35,939 nt of DNA, taken from Thermoproteota archaeon. Its GTDB lineage: Archaea; Thermoproteota; Nitrososphaeria_A; Caldarchaeales; Calditenuaceae. The stretch is from NCBI GenBank assembly GCA_030550155.1, contig JAUQPZ010000015.1, positions 1 through 35,939 on the forward strand, given 5' to 3'. Below the pieces are notes generated by a model that saw only the letters and a list, made by a program, of their open reading frames with translations, searched no databases and was not told the DNA's origin. Made by a program: the position numbers and the translations under genes. Of the stretch, positions 18,639 to 26,449 are shown in pieces. Every line of letters begins with the position of its first letter. The stretch's first letter is position 1.

Positions 18639-20300
18639 CTAGTCGAATGAGCCTGCCCCAGATTCCTCTTCCTCCTCTTTCTTCTCTTTCTTCGACTCCT
18701 TTTCAGACAGCTTTGAGGCGGCGATAATGTCGTCTATCTTCAGTATCATGCATGCAGCCTCTACTGCTGACTTGATGACCTGCTTCTTCACGACTACGGG
18801 CTCAAGCACATTCGCGGCCCACATGTCGCCAAGCCTATTCTCCAGAACATTGACGCCCTCCCACTTCTTACCCTCCTTGTGGCTAGACCTGAGGGAGACT
18901 ATGCTCTCTATCGGGTCGAGCCCGGCGTTTTCAGCCAACTGCATTGGAACCCTCTCTAAGGCGTCTGCGAACTTCTCAACAGCTAGCTGCTCCTTCCCAG
19001 GCAAGGTCTTGGCATAATCTCTGAGCCTCGACGCAACCTCTATCTCTGGAGCTCCTCCGCCAGCTATTATCTTGGGCTCTAAGAGGATGTCCTTAACAAC
19101 GTTAATAGCGTCCTTGAAGGACCTTTCGGTCTCGTCAACTATTCTCTGAGTCCCGCCATGTATCAATACCGTGACTGACTTCGGGTTCTTGCAGCCCTCG
19201 ATGAAGACCATCTTGTCCTCACCAACCCTTCTCTCTTCAAGCAGCTCAGCCGTGCCCAGATCTGCCTCCGTGAGGTCGTCGATCCTCGTAACTATCCTTC
19301 CACCGGTGGCCTTAGCAAGCTTGTCCATGTCGCTCTTCTTGATTCTCCTGACAGCAACTATCCCTTTTCTGGCGAGGAAGTGTTGGGCGAGATCATCTAT
19401 CCCTTTTTGGCAGAGCACGACATTCGCCCCAGTCGCGGCTATCTTGTCAACCATCTCTCTCAGCATCTTCTCCTCCTCTTCCATGAAGGCCCTCATCTGC
19501 TCAGGCGTCTCGATATTGAGTTTAGCGTCAAACTCTGTCTTCTCTATCTCTAAGCTCGCATCCAGCAACGCAATCCTGGGGTTCCTGACAAGCTTCGGCA
19601 TATCTGGGTGAACTATCTCCTTGTCGAGGACAACACCCTCTATCAGCTTTGTATCACTTATTGAGCCGTACTCTTTTTTCTCAAGCTTAACATCGTCGAG
19701 ATCCACCTTCCACTGGCCGTTTACCTTCTCAGCGACCTTCAAGACAGCGTTAACAGCGAGCTCCGCTACGAAGTCTGCGTACTCCGATACAAGTTTGCTT
19801 ATAAGCGCGCTTTTGGCAATTTTGACTAGCTCTTCCTTGTTGCTGGGATTGACGCTGACAGCGATTTTGTCGAGAACGTTTATTGCCTCCTTGGCAGCAT
19901 TCCTGAAACCCTCGATGATTATTGAGGGGTGAACTTCTTTCTCTATAAGCTCCTCCGCCTTGGCTAAGAGTTCTCCCGACAGGACGACGGCTGTGGTGGT
20001 CCCATCACCGACCTCCTCATCCTGCGCCTTGGCAACCTCTACAAGCATCTTAGCCACGGGGTGCTCTACATCCATCTCCTTTAGGATGGTGGCACCGTCG
20101 TTTGTGATCACAATGTCTCCGAAGCTGTCGACCAGCATCTTATCCATACCGCGGGGGCCGAGGGAAGTCCTCATAGTCTCTGCGATGACTTTTGCAACCA
20201 TTATCGCTGCAGATTGAGCCTCTCGCCCTCTCGTCCTCTGCGTCCCCTCTTTCAGAATGATAACAGGGACAGTCCCTACACTACTTGGAGCTGTTGCCAT
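18639..20300 (-). CDS. Thermosome subunit (group II chaperonin)
   Basis: This 553-residue protein is a full-length CCT/thermosome subunit. The N-terminus has [19 protein letters not shown]. The ATP-binding region has [14 protein letters not shown] and [15 protein letters not shown]; the catalytic [15 protein letters not shown] lies near residue 97. The apical domain (about 210-370) and the C-terminal ATP-site block [15 protein letters not shown] are present. The acidic tail ends [12 protein letters not shown] rather than in the GGM repeats many thermosomes have. It folds cytosolic proteins as a double ring. The ATG has a GGTGA ribosome site 11 nt upstream and a TATA box at 20337-20344. Only one subunit gene is in the window; a partner subunit may be elsewhere. 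Confidence 0.98.
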
Positions 20301-20712: not shown

Positions 20713-21705
20713 TTGGAAAGACGTTTAAGGATGGTGATTCCTAAGGGCTCTCTTGAGAGTGGGGCCATAGAGCTACTTCAGAAGGCATTCTATAGGGTGG
20801 AGGGGTACGAGAGAAGCTATACCCCCCGGATAAGCGATAAAGAGATAGACCTGAGGATACTTAGGCCGCAGGAGATTCCGGTTTACGTTGCGGAGGGTCT
20901 CTTCGATGTCGGCATCACAGGCCTCGACTGGGTCAAGGAGACCGGTGCCAACGTCAAGATGCTCAAGGACTTAGAGTTCGGAAGAGTGAAACTCGTCTTT
21001 GCTGCCCCCGCTAATGCGGGATTCAAAAACATGAACCAGTTCCTAGAGATGTATCTCGCCGATGGGAGACCTGTGAGAATAGCTACAGAGTATCTGAATC
21101 TAACCATGGAGCACGTGATGTCGACGGAGGCCTATAAAGAAAGGTTCGGGGCTAAAAGGCCTATGATCATTACTCCGTGGTATAGGCGGGGTGAGAACGC
21201 TAAGGTCGCTATTCTTCTCTCCTTCGGTGCGACCGAGGCAAAGCCTCCATTGGCGGCAGACGCGGTTGTGGATAACACAGAGACGGGGAAGACCTTGGAG
21301 CAGAATAACCTCGCAATAGTTGAGGAGCTGATGGAGAGCTCGGCGTATCTAATCGCTAACCAGGAGGCGATGGAGGACGACTGGAAGCGTGAGAAGATAT
21401 ACGATGTCTTAACGATGTTCACGGGAGTTTTAGAGTCGGAGAAGAAACTCCACATCTTCCTAAACGTGAGAGAGGAGAACCTACCCGAGCTCCTCTCTAC
21501 GCTACCAGCCCTAAAATCTCCCACCATAAATAAGCTCTCCACAGAAGGGTGGTATGCGGTTAACACAGTAATAAACAAGTCCGAGCTTCACAAGCTCTTA
21601 CCAAAACTAAGGAGGCTTGCTCAGGGACTCGTAGCCCACAAGCCAGAACTCATACTCCCCCTAGAGGAGATTAGCCGTGAAAGTGATGCTGGTGTCGAGG
21701 AATAA
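20713..21705 (+). CDS. hisG: ATP phosphoribosyltransferase, long form
   Basis: This 330-residue enzyme makes the first committed step of histidine synthesis, joining ATP and PRPP. RMVIPKGSLESGAIELLQKA opens the protein (residues 6-25). FDVGITGLDWVKE and the PRPP-binding region (SFGATEAKPPLAADAVVDNT then ETGKTLEQNNLAIVEELM, residues about 170-206) follow. The remaining C-terminal part of about 110 residues is the ACT-like regulatory domain of the long form, so HisZ is not needed and histidine feedback is expected. The usual long form is about 290 residues; this one is somewhat longer because of insertions and a tail. Start TTG at 20713 fits the TATA box; ATG at 20731 would shorten it by six residues. 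The gene overlaps hisD by 29 nt. Confidence 0.93.
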   Translation: MERRLRMVIPKGSLESGAIELLQKAFYRVEGYERSYTPRISDKEIDLRILRPQEIPVYVAEGLFDVGITGLDWVKETGANVKMLKDLEFGRVKLVFAAPANAGFKNMNQFLEMYLADGRPVRIATEYLNLTMEHVMSTEAYKERFGAKRPMIITPWYRRGENAKVAILLSFGATEAKPPLAADAVVDNTETGKTLEQNNLAIVEELMESSAYLIANQEAMEDDWKREKIYDVLTMFTGVLESEKKLHIFLNVREENLPELLSTLPALKSPTINKLSTEGWYAVNTVINKSELHKLLPKLRRLAQGLVAHKPELILPLEEISRESDAGVEE

Positions 21706-22975
21706 CGCAGCTGAGACAGCATTACAGCTCCGGACCCGGGCGGCGGGGGACAGCGAGATTAAGGAGATAGTCCGAGAGATCGTCGAGGATGTCAGGAAGG
21801 AGGGGGACGAGGCGCTCATCAGACTCGCTTCACAGATAGACAGGGTTGACCTCAGCCTAGAAGAGCTCTTAACAGAGAGAGAGGAGATGAAGGAATCTCT
21901 TCAGCATCTACCTCCCGACCTTATACTGGCGCTGAAGACCCTGCGTCGGAATATACAGGCTTTTGAAAGACGTATCTTTAAGAGACTCTCCATCTCTTTA
22001 AACATCAACGGGTACGCGGTCAACTTTAGACCTATACCCCTCGAATCCGTTGGATGCTATGCACCCGGCGGCCTCGCGTCATATCCATCAACCATCATGA
22101 TGCTGGGCGTTCCCGGATCGCTGGCCGGCGTAGAGAGGCTTGTTCTTGCAACACCTCCGCGGAGAAATGAGGCTGATAAAAGGCTCGTCATGGCTGCGGC
22201 TTATCTGGCAGGGTTTCACCAGATCCTTTGGGCGGGCGGGGCTCAGGCCATAGCTGCTCTAGCATATGGGACGCAGAGGCTGCGTCGCGTCATGAAGATT
22301 CTGGGGCCTGGAAATAGGTTCGTTCTCGAGGCAAAGCTCCTTGTCTCAAAAGAGGTCACTGTTGATTTTACTGCGGGACCTACAGAGCTGCTGGTAGTAA
22401 CTGACTGCCACTCCCCTCATGGTCAAGCAGCTCTCGAGCTTCTGGCTCAGGCCGAGCACAGCCCAGACACGCTGGTGGGGGCGATAACTCTTGACGCCGA
22501 GTCCGGGGAGCAGCTGCTCTCGAAGCTCAATGAACTCCTCGAGAAGCTACCTGAAGGGTCTGCAGCCAAGAAATCTATAGCCGATAACGGCTTTATATGC
22601 GCGGCCGACAGTTGGGAAGCGGCGGCACGCTTCATAAACACACTGGCCCCCGAGCACATCCTCGTCTATGCAAGGGTAGGTTGGAGAAACTTGAGGATGA
22701 TTCGTAACGCGGGTGTAGTGAGCTATGGGCCAGCATCTTCCAGCGTCTTTCTCGACTACTATGCCGGTCCCAGCCACGTCCTGCCCACGGAGGGAATGGC
22801 ATCCATAAGAGGAGGCTTAACCGTGCTAGACTACGTGAAGCTCCTTCCAGTAGTTAAACCGACGAAGCCCAGCCTAGCCAAAGCCCTAAAAAATATGAGG
22901 CCACTCATCCTCGCAGAGGGGCTGCCGCTACACCTTCGGGCCTTGGAGGGCGCACTGGGTCATGACGCTAAATAA
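21677..22975 (+). CDS. hisD: Histidinol dehydrogenase
   Basis: This 432-residue enzyme oxidises histidinol to histidine with two NAD+. Family motifs are present: VGCYAPGGLASYPSTIMMLG (residues about 116-136), GPGNRFVLEAKLLV, VDFTAGPTELLV, the zinc-site segment LLAQAEHSPDTL near 255-266 and GPSHVLPTEGMA near 365-376. Length is normal. GTG 21677 is favoured over ATG 21686, because GAGGAG at 21664-21669 is correctly spaced for the GTG. It overlaps hisG by 29 nt and the HAD gene by 14 nt, so translation of the three is probably coupled. Confidence 0.95.
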   Translation: MKVMLVSRNNAAETALQLRTRAAGDSEIKEIVREIVEDVRKEGDEALIRLASQIDRVDLSLEELLTEREEMKESLQHLPPDLILALKTLRRNIQAFERRIFKRLSISLNINGYAVNFRPIPLESVGCYAPGGLASYPSTIMMLGVPGSLAGVERLVLATPPRRNEADKRLVMAAAYLAGFHQILWAGGAQAIAALAYGTQRLRRVMKILGPGNRFVLEAKLLVSKEVTVDFTAGPTELLVVTDCHSPHGQAALELLAQAEHSPDTLVGAITLDAESGEQLLSKLNELLEKLPEGSAAKKSIADNGFICAADSWEAAARFINTLAPEHILVYARVGWRNLRMIRNAGVVSYGPASSSVFLDYYAGPSHVLPTEGMASIRGGLTVLDYVKLLPVVKPTKPSLAKALKNMRPLILAEGLPLHLRALEGALGHDAK

Positions 22976-24134
22976 ATACATTAAAATCTCGTTCGGTAGA
23001 GAGGCATACATCTTAAAGGATTCAAGAGCTATACTCAAAGACATAGACTCGGTGTTATTCGACTGCGACGGAGTCTTAATAGACACGAGAGAAAGTTATG
23101 ACAATGCAATAGTTGAGTCTGTCAGCATCTTATTCAAAAAAATTCTAAACATAGAGCTCATCGGCTCATACATAACTCCCAGCCACATCTACGTTCTAAG
23201 GGCTACTGGAGGATTCAACAATGATACAGACACGGTCTACATCCTCTCACTATGGCTGTTTACTGGTCTACAAAAGTCTAGAGCAGAGGTTTTGACCTCC
23301 CTCGACTCCATTGTAAATGACGTTAGAAATCCTCGCGACCTGCTCAGCAAGGTCTCGCAGATTGTAGCCTCAGAGACAGGGTATTTGCCGCATGAGGTTG
23401 CCCCGACCCCTCAACCTCTTGAAAAAGCCATTTCCGAGAGCATGAGGCGGGTTGGAAGCCAGGTTCTCAGCATAAAAGATCTGGAGGAGACTCTTCGCGA
23501 GGTAGCTAGGCAAAATGGCTTCGTTGAGCTTTTCGATATCTTCAGCAGCATACTGGGAAAGCCCGGTAAATATGGTCAAAGCCTCGTTGAAACCCTCTTC
23601 TGCGACCTATACTACGGCCCCGAAAATGTTAGAAGAATATTTGAGGACGGCCCCTTCTTCGACCTAGGGCCAGGCATGTACCTCAAGGAGAGAGTAAACA
23701 TCGATGAATCGACGCTGAGGTGGCTCTCTGAAAAAGTAGGGACTAAAAGAGTAGGCATCGTAAGTGGCAGGGACAGGATCTCGACTGAGCTTGTCTTGGG
23801 TGGGTTGATGAGGTATTTCAACCGGGATGCCTGTGTCTTCCTCGCAGATGAGTATAGGGTTCTGGGGGAGATTGTTAAGAAGCCCAGTCCTTACGGAGTG
23901 TTGAAGGCGGTATCGAGGATGGAGGGCGCGTCGTCTCCGCTCTATGTAGGGAATTCTGCCGAAGACTATTTTATGACTAAGAGCTCTGAGAAGTACGGTG
24001 TGAAGGCCTCTTTCGCATCGATTATAGGCCTAGCACCAAATCCCAGCGATACTATCGAGTTCTTTGCCTCGCTCGGAGCAGACACCATTCTCTGGTCCCC
24101 TGACGACATAGTAAAAATTTTGGGGATGTTTTGA
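22962..24134 (+). CDS. HAD-superfamily phosphatase in the his operon, candidate histidinol-phosphate phosphatase
   Basis: This 390-residue protein has HAD motif I VLFDCDGVLIDT (nucleophile D34, acid/base D36), motif II in GIVSGRDR (serine near residue 268), motif III lysine in VKKPSPYG (about 306) and motif IV VGNSAEDYF (329-337), where asparagine replaces the usual first aspartate. More than 200 residues lie between motifs I and II, giving a large helical cap as in subfamily IA but longer. The family cleaves phosphomonoesters. Its place between hisD and hisB, overlapping both, suggests it supplies the histidinol-phosphate phosphatase that no other gene here provides. That role is inference. 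GGAGGG at 22946-22951 is its ribosome site. Confidence 0.8.
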   Translation: MTLNKYIKISFGREAYILKDSRAILKDIDSVLFDCDGVLIDTRESYDNAIVESVSILFKKILNIELIGSYITPSHIYVLRATGGFNNDTDTVYILSLWLFTGLQKSRAEVLTSLDSIVNDVRNPRDLLSKVSQIVASETGYLPHEVAPTPQPLEKAISESMRRVGSQVLSIKDLEETLREVARQNGFVELFDIFSSILGKPGKYGQSLVETLFCDLYYGPENVRRIFEDGPFFDLGPGMYLKERVNIDESTLRWLSEKVGTKRVGIVSGRDRISTELVLGGLMRYFNRDACVFLADEYRVLGEIVKKPSPYGVLKAVSRMEGASSPLYVGNSAEDYFMTKSSEKYGVKASFASIIGLAPNPSDTIEFFASLGADTILWSPDDIVKILGMF

Positions 24135-24715
24135 TGGAGAGGCGCAGCAGCTCCGTAACCCGTGAGACCGGAGAGACAAAGGTGACTGTAAAGTTAACCA
24201 TCGATGGTGAGGGGGTCTTCGAGGGCTCAACAGATATCAAATTCTTAGACCACATCCTCTCACTACTAGCCCACCACGCCATAATAGACCTCAACGTTGA
24301 GGCGAAGTGGGACCTGAAGCATCACGGAGTGGAGGATGTTGGAATCGTCCTCGGCAAGGCGGTTGGCGAGGCGCTGGGTGACAGAGAGGGCATAGCGCGG
24401 TTTGGATATGCAATAGTCCCCATGGACGAGGCCCTCGCAGAAGCCTCGGTCGACCTGATCAGGAGGGCGCATGCCACTGTAAATTTAGGGCTCGCGGGCC
24501 AAAACGTCGAAGACATGGCCGTGGAAGACATAGTACATCTTCTCCAATCCTTCACAGTGTCCATACCGGCCGTAGCGCACATCAACTTGAGATATGGATA
24601 CAACGATCACCACAGGGTGGAGGCTGCAGTAAAAGCGTTAGCCCTCGCTCTGAGAGAGGCCTGGCGGCGGGAGCCTCGGAGAAGGGGGCCGCCAAGTAGT
24701 AAGGGAGTGGTTTAG
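24134..24715 (+). CDS. hisB: Imidazoleglycerol-phosphate dehydratase
   Basis: This 193-residue enzyme removes water from imidazole-glycerol phosphate. The manganese-binding histidine clusters are clear: FLDHILSLLAHHAIID (residues about 37-52), HHGVEDVGIVLGKAVGEALG (about 63-82) and YGYNDHHRVEAAVKALALAL near 156-175. MDEALAEASVDL is the central motif. It is the single-function archaeal form with no fused phosphatase, so a separate phosphatase is needed. The ATG at 24134 overlaps the TGA of the HAD gene (TGATG); an in-frame TTG one codon upstream is also possible. The stop directly abuts the hisH ATG. The C-terminus is slightly longer and basic (RREPRRRGPPSSKG). Confidence 0.95.
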   Translation: MERRSSSVTRETGETKVTVKLTIDGEGVFEGSTDIKFLDHILSLLAHHAIIDLNVEAKWDLKHHGVEDVGIVLGKAVGEALGDREGIARFGYAIVPMDEALAEASVDLIRRAHATVNLGLAGQNVEDMAVEDIVHLLQSFTVSIPAVAHINLRYGYNDHHRVEAAVKALALALREAWRREPRRRGPPSSKGVV

Positions 24716-25369: not shown

Positions 25370-26449
25370 ATGGAAATTCCTGGGAAGATGGCCGAGCTGT
25401 GGACTGTTGAGGGAGGCAGAGTGAAGTGTACAGCCTGCGCCAGGTATTGCCGTCTTTCCGAAGGGCAGGTGGGACTATGCGGCATCCGGGGCGCCCATGG
25501 AGGCGAACTCTACCTCTACGTATATGGGCGCGTGATAGCTAGCCATGTCGACCCTATAGAGAAGAAGCCGGTCACACACTATATGCCCGGAACCAAGATA
25601 TTCAGTATTGCGACAACAGGTTGTAACTGGCTCTGCCAATACTGCCAAAACTTCGACATCAGCCAGAGGAGGAAAGTTGAGGGGATAGAGGTTACTCCCG
25701 GACAGGTGGTAGATCATGCAGTAAGATATGGGTCTCACGGAATAGCCTACACCTACAATGAGCCGACGATCTTCATGGAGTTCGCCCGGGACGTGGGGCT
25801 TGAGGCTAAAAGACGAGGCCTGTTCAACGTCTTCGTCACAAATGGTTACTGGACGCCAGAGTCTGTGGCCATGGCGGGCACATTCCTTGACGCCGCTACC
25901 GTGGACTTCAAGGGGAATGGGGAGAAAAACTTTGTGAGGCGATACATAGGTATTCCGGACGCTGAACCCATCTTCCAGACCCTCCTAGAGCTGAGGGACA
26001 AGACACGTATACACATCGAGATAACGGACCTTGTAATACCCGAGATTGGGGACGACTTAGGCGCGGCAAGACGGCTTGTGAGGTGGGTGCATGACAACCT
26101 CGGCCCAGACACGCCCATACACTTCCTAAGATTCCACCCAGACTACAAGCTCATGCATCTGCCATGGACCCCCGTCGAGACCCTCGAAGCCCACTGGAAA
26201 ATAGCAAAGGAGGAGGGAATGAACTATGCCTACATAGGAAACGTTCCAGGCCACCCATACGAGCACACCTACTGCCCGGGCTGCGGAGACCGAGTAGTGG
26301 AGAGGCTCGGATTCGACATAATCGAGTGGCGCCTAACCCCGAAGAACACATGCCCAAATTGCGACTACAAGATAGCAATAGTAGGGAAGCCGCCAGCGAA
26401 AGAATCTAAGAAGAGCAGGTTCATACCCGTCCACTGGAACCTAAGCTAA
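25370..26449 (+). CDS. amrS: AmmeMemoRadiSam-type radical SAM enzyme (AmrS)
   Basis: This 359-residue protein has the family's N-terminal Cys cluster CTACARYCRLSEGQVGLCGIR (in parts, residues about 21-41). The radical-SAM motif CNWLCQYC follows (C85, C89, C92; CxxxCxxC), within IATTGCNWLCQYCQNFDIS. YTYNEPTIFMEFA and FVTNGYW are typical of pyruvate-formate-lyase-activase-like members, and HFLRFHPDYKL is an AmrS-like segment. A C-terminal zinc-ribbon-like block has CPGCGDRVV and CPNCDYKIA. Partners AMMECR1 and Memo, which give the family its name, are not in the window. The reaction is unknown. It lies 57 nt after hisH and may be separately transcribed (CTTTAAGA at about 25334). Confidence 0.85.
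   Translation: MEIPGKMAELWTVEGGRVKCTACARYCRLSEGQVGLCGIRGAHGGELYLYVYGRVIASHVDPIEKKPVTHYMPGTKIFSIATTGCNWLCQYCQNFDISQRRKVEGIEVTPGQVVDHAVRYGSHGIAYTYNEPTIFMEFARDVGLEAKRRGLFNVFVTNGYWTPESVAMAGTFLDAATVDFKGNGEKNFVRRYIGIPDAEPIFQTLLELRDKTRIHIEITDLVIPEIGDDLGAARRLVRWVHDNLGPDTPIHFLRFHPDYKLMHLPWTPVETLEAHWKIAKEEGMNYAYIGNVPGHPYEHTYCPGCGDRVVERLGFDIIEWRLTPKNTCPNCDYKIAIVGKPPAKESKKSRFIPVHWNLS

What the first reader, a model, noticed from the sequence alone, without database searches (positions are those of the whole stretch)
22962..24134. Candidate non-orthologous histidinol-phosphate phosphatase in the his operon
A 390-residue HAD protein overlaps both hisD and hisB. The neighbouring hisB is the single-domain dehydratase, so a separate phosphatase is required. 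The protein has a cap of over 200 residues between motifs I and II and an unusual GNSAED motif IV (Asn for the first Asp), so it is not a standard HisN/HisB phosphatase.
Basis: partly seen in the sequence, partly recalled or inferred. Interest (0 to 1): 0.58.

Follow-up and report, generated by a model that had tools for sequence, protein, structure and literature searches.

The report
Archaeal candidate histidinol-phosphate phosphatase gene
This archaeal gene, kept next to the histidine-making genes in many related archaea, very probably makes the enzyme for the one histidine step usually missing from archaeal gene lists: a phosphatase with an unusually large lid.

Summary
ORF 22962-24134 (+) encodes a 390-aa HAD phosphatase that overlaps hisD by 14 nt and hisB by 1 or 4 nt, in a hisG-hisD-HAD-hisB-hisH operon. 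All catalytic HAD residues are present, and a large C1 cap lies between motifs I and II (AlphaFold pLDDT 89). The Asn in motif IV is real but not telling: relatives carry Asn or Asp there. In 151 Thermoproteota genomes the family occurs in 59; 57 of these also have hisB, and in 47 the HAD gene sits directly upstream of hisB, across ten families. G000 has no curated PHP, IMPase-type or HisB-N HolPase above cut-off. The nearest curated family is TIGR01548 (sub-threshold); the nearest solved structure is Tt82 of Thermococcus thioreducens, whose genus has a reported monofunctional HAD HolPase. Best reading: a long-cap HAD histidinol-phosphate phosphatase, not yet assayed. Against: one derived clade has left the operon, and eight of its genomes keep the gene without hisD. 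It is a new variant of a known kind, useful because HolPase was the commonest low-confidence step in one survey of amino-acid pathways.

The parts
22962..24134 (+). candidate HAD-type histidinol-phosphate phosphatase gene (390 aa)
23061..23084 (+). HAD motif I, DCDGVLID (nucleophile D34, acid/base D36)
   Evidence: D34 and D36 in 57 of 57 aligned rows
23088..23741 (+). C1 cap region, about residues 43-260, mainly helical
   Evidence: AlphaFold2 secondary structure; whole-length match to 1QYI
23208..23225 (+). cap signature GGFNND (residues 83-88)
   Evidence: G83 and N86 in 57 of 57 rows; counterparts in Tt82 (GSFGDD) and 1QYI (GLNSNW)
23763..23771 (+). HAD motif II, S268-G-R
   Evidence: Ser or Thr at 268 in 57 of 57 rows
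23880..23882 (+). HAD motif III, K307
   Evidence: 57 of 57 rows
23949..23966 (+). HAD motif IV, GNSAED (N331, E334, D335)
   Evidence: D335 in 56 of 57 rows, 331 is N or D
21677..22975 (+). hisD, histidinol dehydrogenase; overlaps the HAD gene by 14 nt
   Evidence: TIGR00069 365.9 bits, over cut-off
24131..24715 (+). hisB, single-domain imidazoleglycerol-phosphate dehydratase
   Evidence: PF00475 159.6 bits; NF002111 201.9 bits, under its 231 cut-off
20713..21705 (+). hisG, ATP phosphoribosyltransferase (long form)
   Evidence: TIGR00070 159.2 and TIGR03455 78.2 bits
24716..25312 (+). hisH, imidazole glycerol phosphate synthase subunit
   Evidence: TIGR01855 215 bits

Best explanation
The gene encodes a monofunctional histidinol-phosphate phosphatase (EC 3.1.3.15) of the HAD superfamily with a C1 cap (subfamily IA-like). 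D34 attacks the phosphate of L-histidinol phosphate to form an aspartyl-phosphate, D36 acts as acid/base, S268 and K307 hold the phosphate, and D335 with N331/E334 helps to bind Mg2+. The large helical cap closes over the imidazole-bearing substrate, with the conserved GGFNND loop the likely specificity element. The gene overlaps hisD, which encodes the next enzyme, and hisB. Shown here: gene, operon, catalytic residues, conservation, predicted fold. Inferred: the reaction, the substrate, the roles of single residues (from what is known of HAD enzymes) and of the cap loop.
For: (1) Overlapping genes in hisG-hisD-HAD-hisB-hisH. (2) In 151 Thermoproteota genomes 59 have the family, 57 of these also have hisB, and 47 of 59 have it directly upstream of hisB on the same strand, in ten families. 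(3) Named Nitrosopumilus, Thaumarchaeota, Cenarchaeum and Bathyarchaeota loci have it between hisC and hisB; L150, L153, L154, L156 and L157 hold hisG, D, C, B, H, A, F and I around it. Rows matched at only 22-25% identity keep the place and a G-x-(F/Y)-N-(N/D)-D-W signature. (4) G000 also has hisC, hisA, hisF and hisI but no HisJ hit, no HisN over cut-off (37.3 of 275 bits needed) and no HisB-N over cut-off (30.5 of 84). (5) Catalytic residues are conserved; the model fits HAD phosphatases. (6) All 20 members of A1 match TIGR01548, the family most of them share, below cut-off. Haloferax volcanii is among the control genomes with a TIGR01548 hit, as are E. coli and B. subtilis, so that hit is not specific; in Haloferax a transposon in the HAD gene HVO_0431 gave histidine auxotrophy (PMC4300041, passages; PMC8305020). 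(7) The nearest solved relative is Thermococcus Tt82 (E 2.8e-26), and a monofunctional HAD HolPase is reported from Thermococcus onnurineus (PMC5516325, passages).
Against: No activity data. Position in an operon and a missing step do not prove the substrate. A clade of 27 rows has left the operon (95/89 support). Within it G034, G036, G040 and G041 have the HAD but neither hisB nor hisD, and G024, G026, G030 and G033 have no hisD and only a weak IGPD hit, so members can persist without the pathway. G012 and G015 carry both the operon HAD and a PHP HisJ-type hit over cut-off. Lack of a curated HolPase is common: of 65 hisB-positive genomes without the HAD only 8 have a HisJ hit over cut-off. 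TIGR01548 matches are all below cut-off. G000 is only 90% complete. That HVO_0431 is a TIGR01548 protein, and that Tt82 is the orthologue of the T. onnurineus enzyme, were not tested.
Confidence: 0.85

Rival explanations
1. The HAD protein is a broad-range or house-cleaning phosphatase that happens to sit in the operon, while histidinol phosphate is dephosphorylated by another enzyme, for example the IMPase-like protein at G000:C26 or an HD-superfamily hydrolase.
For: An IMPase-like gene is present (37.3 bits to HisN). An HD-superfamily substitute was suggested for other archaea (PMC3189178, passage). Some relatives keep the HAD without hisD.
Against: The IMPase-like hit is far below the HisN cut-off, and such hits occur in 49 of 61 genomes whether or not the HAD is present. 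A house-cleaning enzyme would not be expected to stay next to hisB in 47 of 59 genomes of ten families.
Confidence: 0.1
2. The protein removes phosphate from another compound tied to the pathway, such as a side product or a damaged phosphoribosyl intermediate, as a repair enzyme.
For: HAD phosphatases of this fold serve many substrates; operon membership alone does not name the step.
Against: The pathway has one phosphatase step, and no curated enzyme for it was found over cut-off in G000 or its five congeners.
Confidence: 0.03
3. The protein is no longer a phosphatase, for instance a structural or regulatory partner of HisD or HisB, as hinted by Asn in motif IV.
For: N331 in place of the usual Asp in this protein and in 7 of 30 operonic rows, itself included.
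Against: D34, D36, S/T268 and K307 are present in 57 of 57 rows and D335 in 56; Asp and Asn alternate at 331 within the family.
Confidence: 0.02

Closest known systems
TIGR01548 family HAD-type hydrolase (NCBIfam, hypothetical equivalog)
   Same: Matched by all 20 aligned members, including motif I and the start of the cap.
   Different: All scores are below the cut-off of 140.2 bits (43.3 for this protein, best 79.5).
Monofunctional HAD HolPase of Thermococcus onnurineus (Lee et al. 2008, J Bacteriol 190:2629; paper not held, known here from citations in PMC5516325)
   Same: Archaeal, monofunctional, HAD/DDDD-type HolPase, so it probably works the same way.
   Different: Its sequence could not be obtained here; orthology untested.
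Tt82 of Thermococcus thioreducens (PDB 6IAH)
   Same: Nearest solved relative by sequence: profile E 2.8e-26; Z 21.2 over 239 of 240 residues at 23% identity; both pieces of it that I scanned match TIGR01548 best.
   Different: 240 aa with a much smaller cap; described only as HAD-superfamily hydrolase (PMC4498700 table).
S. aureus Q8NW41 (PDB 1QYI)
   Same: Large cap shared along the whole length: Z 25.6 over 324 residues, profile E 6.1e-10.
   Different: Function unknown, 14-17% identity.
HVO_0431 of Haloferax volcanii
   Same: HAD protein whose disruption gave histidine auxotrophy and which was proposed to fill the HolPase gap.
   Different: Sequence not available here; relation by TIGR01548 is an inference.
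E. coli HisB-N (HAD-type HolPase of the bifunctional enzyme)
   Same: Same superfamily and predicted reaction.
   Different: Fused to HisB and without a C1 cap (recalled); this protein is separate with a large cap, and TIGR01656 does not hit it in G000, though 2 of 20 A1 members match TIGR01656 weakly, best 4.2e-5.
PHP-type HisJ and IMPase-type HisN
   Same: Same reaction if the prediction is right.
   Different: Unrelated folds (recalled); the protein has HAD motifs instead.

Membership tests
HAD superfamily phosphatase | Four catalytic motifs (DxD, S/T, K, acidic motif IV) on a HAD core | tested here: met
   PF00702 over cut-off; residues conserved; fold
HAD superfamily phosphatase | C1 cap between motifs I and II | tested here: met
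   Helical insertion between D34 and S268 in the model
TIGR01548 | Score over the curated cut-off of 140.2 bits | tested here: not met
   43.3 bits; best of the 20 members 79.5
HisB-N / TIGR01656 type HolPase | Match to TIGR01656 over cut-off | tested here: not met
   No TIGR01656 match at this gene in G000
PHP-type HolPase (HisJ) | Match to TIGR01856 | tested here: not met
   No hit in G000
IMPase-type HolPase (HisN) | Match to TIGR02067 over cut-off | tested here: not met
   Only another G000 gene at 37.3 bits, cut-off 275.15
Archaeal monofunctional HAD HolPase (T. onnurineus type) | Orthology to the characterised protein | not testable with these tools
   Paper not held, sequence not at hand; indirect link through Tt82 only
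Histidinol-phosphate phosphatase (EC 3.1.3.15) | Hydrolysis of L-histidinol phosphate | not testable with these tools
   Needs an assay
Histidinol-phosphate phosphatase (EC 3.1.3.15) | Conserved genomic link to the histidine pathway | tested here: met
   47 of 59 directly upstream of hisB; not so in one derived clade

The most novel reading that the evidence does not exclude
C1-capped HAD proteins with the G-x-(F/Y)-N cap signature (this gene, its kin in ammonia-oxidising archaea and Bathyarchaeota, Thermococcus Tt82, haloarchaeal TIGR01548 proteins, perhaps even S. aureus 1QYI) form one ancient histidinol-phosphate phosphatase family, not recognised as such, that fills the commonest gap in annotated histidine biosynthesis; a side branch beside reverse gyrase has taken another job.
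Probability: 0.4. Interest if true: 0.6.

Novelty: new variant of a known kind. Interest (0 to 1): 0.42.

Why it matters
HolPase was the most frequent low-confidence step in GapMind's wider test set: 42 of 148 organisms able to grow without amino acids (PMC7311316, passage). It was unannotated in all ANME and methanogen genomes of one study (PMC9012536, passage) and missing in Thermoproteus tenax (PMC3189178, passage). A testable family present across ammonia-oxidising archaea, Bathyarchaeota and the kin of this organism would close that gap for a good part of the Thermoproteota, and one assay or complementation would settle it.

Tried and rejected
A chance ORF, frame error or pseudogene was rejected: the gene is 65% identical in a congener with the same operon. 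Inactivity through Asn in motif IV was rejected, since N and D alternate. HisN, HisJ and HisB-N membership was rejected by curated models. A tblastn of a Nitrosopumilus relative against plasmids, meant to reach haloarchaeal TIGR01548 proteins, found nothing. In the held library no paper that I found names this gene family as HolPase in Thaumarchaeota or Aigarchaeota (searches; listings, not every paper read); many subscription papers are not held. In the VIA list only 50 entries are shown; no HisB-N entry is among them, which excludes nothing. The 1277-aa ORF in L156 proved a read-through: HisG and HisD lie in another frame, HisC in its own.

Rows left out: A2 used 10 of the 13 loci (L156, L158 and L159 left out). 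The tree used 57 rows: L151 (same contig as L056) and L167 (same gene as L052) were dropped, L156, L158 and L159 were not in it, nor were nine of the 45 HAD-bearing genomes (G001-G004, G009, G020, G022, G023, G028). In the tree G039 was labelled non-operonic; later showed hisD directly beside its HAD gene. The operonic label was set by hand; G006 was counted operonic by its hisG-hisD-HAD order although no hisB was found there. The Fisher value ignores relatedness and is not used as proof.

Full report
OBSERVATION. The ORF at 22962-24134 (+) is real and encodes 390 aa. Its ATG lies 14 nt inside hisD and its TGA overlaps the start of hisB by 1 nt (ATG) or 4 nt (TTG). NCBIfam names the neighbours hisG, hisD, HisB (single domain) and hisH; the next gene, 25370-26449, is an AmmeMemoRadiSam radical SAM protein, and a thermosome gene lies upstream on the other strand (18639-20300; named by sight, from memory). 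The host is an archaeon (G000, 1.44 Mb, 90% complete). G039, in the same order as G000, has a contig of the same length, 41,575 bases, as the named record Candidatus Benthortus lauensis, which NCBI places in Nitrososphaerota, Wolframiiraptoraceae. That this order is Caldarchaeales (Aigarchaeota) is from memory.

THE PROTEIN. PF00702 matches over cut-off. TIGR01548 is the best NCBIfam match at 43.3 bits, cut-off 140.2; all 20 members of alignment A1 match it, none over cut-off. In 57 aligned rows D34, D36, K307, G83 and N86 are in all, S or T at 268 in all, and D335 in 56. Position 331 is N in 7 and D in 23 of 30 operonic rows, and N in 15 and D in 12 of 27 other rows. The AlphaFold2 model (11-row alignment A2; mean pLDDT 89.2, pTM 0.85) has a HAD core and a helical C1 cap. 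Foldseek and VIA both rank 1QYI first (S. aureus Q8NW41, unknown function; Z 25.6, rmsd 3.4, 324 residues) and 6IAH second (Tt82 of Thermococcus thioreducens; Z 21.2, rmsd 2.6, 239 residues). The family profile finds 6IAH at 2.8e-26 and 1QYI at 6.1e-10; the next solved HAD is at 1.7e-6. Both pieces of Tt82 that I scanned also match TIGR01548 best.

CONTEXT ACROSS GENOMES. In 61 genomes (own plus 60 relatives) 45 have a homologue at E <= 0.001. In 151 Thermoproteota genomes 59 match the profile at E <= 1e-10 and 122 have IGPD; 57 of the 59 have both, and of the 92 without the HAD 65 have IGPD. In 47 of the 59 the HAD gene is directly upstream of hisB on the same strand, with 98-141 nt between the profile matches, in families f1, f2, f3, f7, f14, f19, f21, f25, f34 and f37; many of the 47 are close kin in f7, so they are not independent. 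Of the 13 loci, nine (L148, L149, L150, L152, L153, L154, L155, L156, L157) have the HAD gene between a hisC and a hisB; L147 has hisG-hisD-HAD-hisB; L159 is cut off inside the HAD gene after hisC; L151 has reverse gyrase-hisD-HAD; L158 is a bacterial HAD matched over 42 residues only. The hisC, hisA, hisF and hisI labels rest on NCBIfam matches of reference members and BLAST to these. 'Reverse gyrase' is my reading of the sequence, from memory.

THE PATHWAY IN G000. Besides hisG, D, B and H in the window, G000 has hisC over cut-off (C11) and a hisA-hisF-hisI cluster on C12. hisE was not sought. No HisJ-type PHP hit, one IMPase-like gene at 37.3 bits against the HisN cut-off of 275.15, and one HAD-IA gene at 30.5 bits against the TIGR01656 cut-off of 84.15 were found. 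The five congeners G001-G005 likewise have nothing over these cut-offs. This is weaker than it sounds: of the 65 IGPD-positive genomes without the HAD only 8 have HisJ over cut-off, so many archaea have no HolPase that these models recognise.

HISTORY OF THE FAMILY. A maximum-likelihood tree of 57 rows puts all 27 rows labelled non-operonic in one clade (95/89), with one change of label. That clade holds f4 genomes and the f3 genera g10, g12, g13 and g14; in the f3 genera the gene usually lies beside reverse gyrase, and in Benthortus hisD still stands between reverse gyrase and the HAD gene. This suggests that a hisD-HAD pair moved and that hisD was later lost or displaced (inference). Within the clade four genomes with the HAD (G034, G036, G040, G041) have neither IGPD nor hisD, and four more (G024, G026, G030, G033) lack hisD and have only a weak IGPD hit. 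The derived branch may thus do something else. The window gene is on the operonic side.

LITERATURE. All readings were passages found by terms, not whole papers. HolPase was low-confidence in 42 of 148 organisms in GapMind (PMC7311316), unannotated in all ANME and methanogen genomes of one study (PMC9012536) and missing in T. tenax, where an HD-superfamily substitute was mentioned (PMC3189178). HVO_0431 of Haloferax volcanii, a HAD protein, gave histidine auxotrophy on transposon insertion (PMC4300041: two mutants with the same insertion site) and was proposed as HolPase (PMC8305020). PMC5516325 reports a monofunctional HAD-type HolPase in Thermococcus onnurineus with homologues in further archaea; the original paper was not held. 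PMC4498700 lists Tt82 as a HAD-superfamily hydrolase.

CONCLUSION. The gene is very probably the histidinol-phosphate phosphatase of this archaeon: a long-cap, C1-type HAD enzyme, part of a broad archaeal family kept in his operons. The reaction is inferred from context and fold. It is a new variant of a known kind (HAD-type HolPases), not a new kind.

Noticed in passing
L048, L049, L050, L054, L055, L057, L059, L061, L062, L064, L065, L066, L068; L151 (2098-8041): A derived branch of the same HAD family lies next to reverse gyrase; in Candidatus Benthortus lauensis the order is reverse gyrase-hisD-HAD, an apparent intermediate of the move out of the operon.
   Followed up: partly
L051, L058, L060, L063, L067: Second HAD copies in genus g12 with altered motifs (GGFNN followed by V or I; GDGGED or GDAGED). 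In L058 the upstream neighbour reads like phenylalanyl-tRNA synthetase beta (by sight).
   Followed up: no
G034, G036, G040, G041 (HAD, no hisB or hisD); G024, G026, G030, G033 (HAD, no hisD): Genomes that keep a HAD of the relocated branch without a recognisable end of the histidine pathway, hinting at a changed function.
   Followed up: partly
G013, G018, G020: Three 95-98% complete genomes have HAD and hisB in one operon but no hisD hit anywhere, while congeners G016, G022 and G028 have hisD on another contig.
   Followed up: no
PDB 1QYI (S. aureus Q8NW41): A solved protein of unknown function is a whole-length homologue that includes the large cap and a GLNSNWD stretch at the place of the cap signature.
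   Followed up: partly
L148 (contig CALHAI010000004.1, labelled Blastocatellia): A contig binned as a bacterium carries an archaeal-type his operon with this HAD gene, probably mis-binned or transferred.
   Followed up: no
G012 and G015: Both the operon HAD and a HisJ-type PHP protein over cut-off are present.
   Followed up: no
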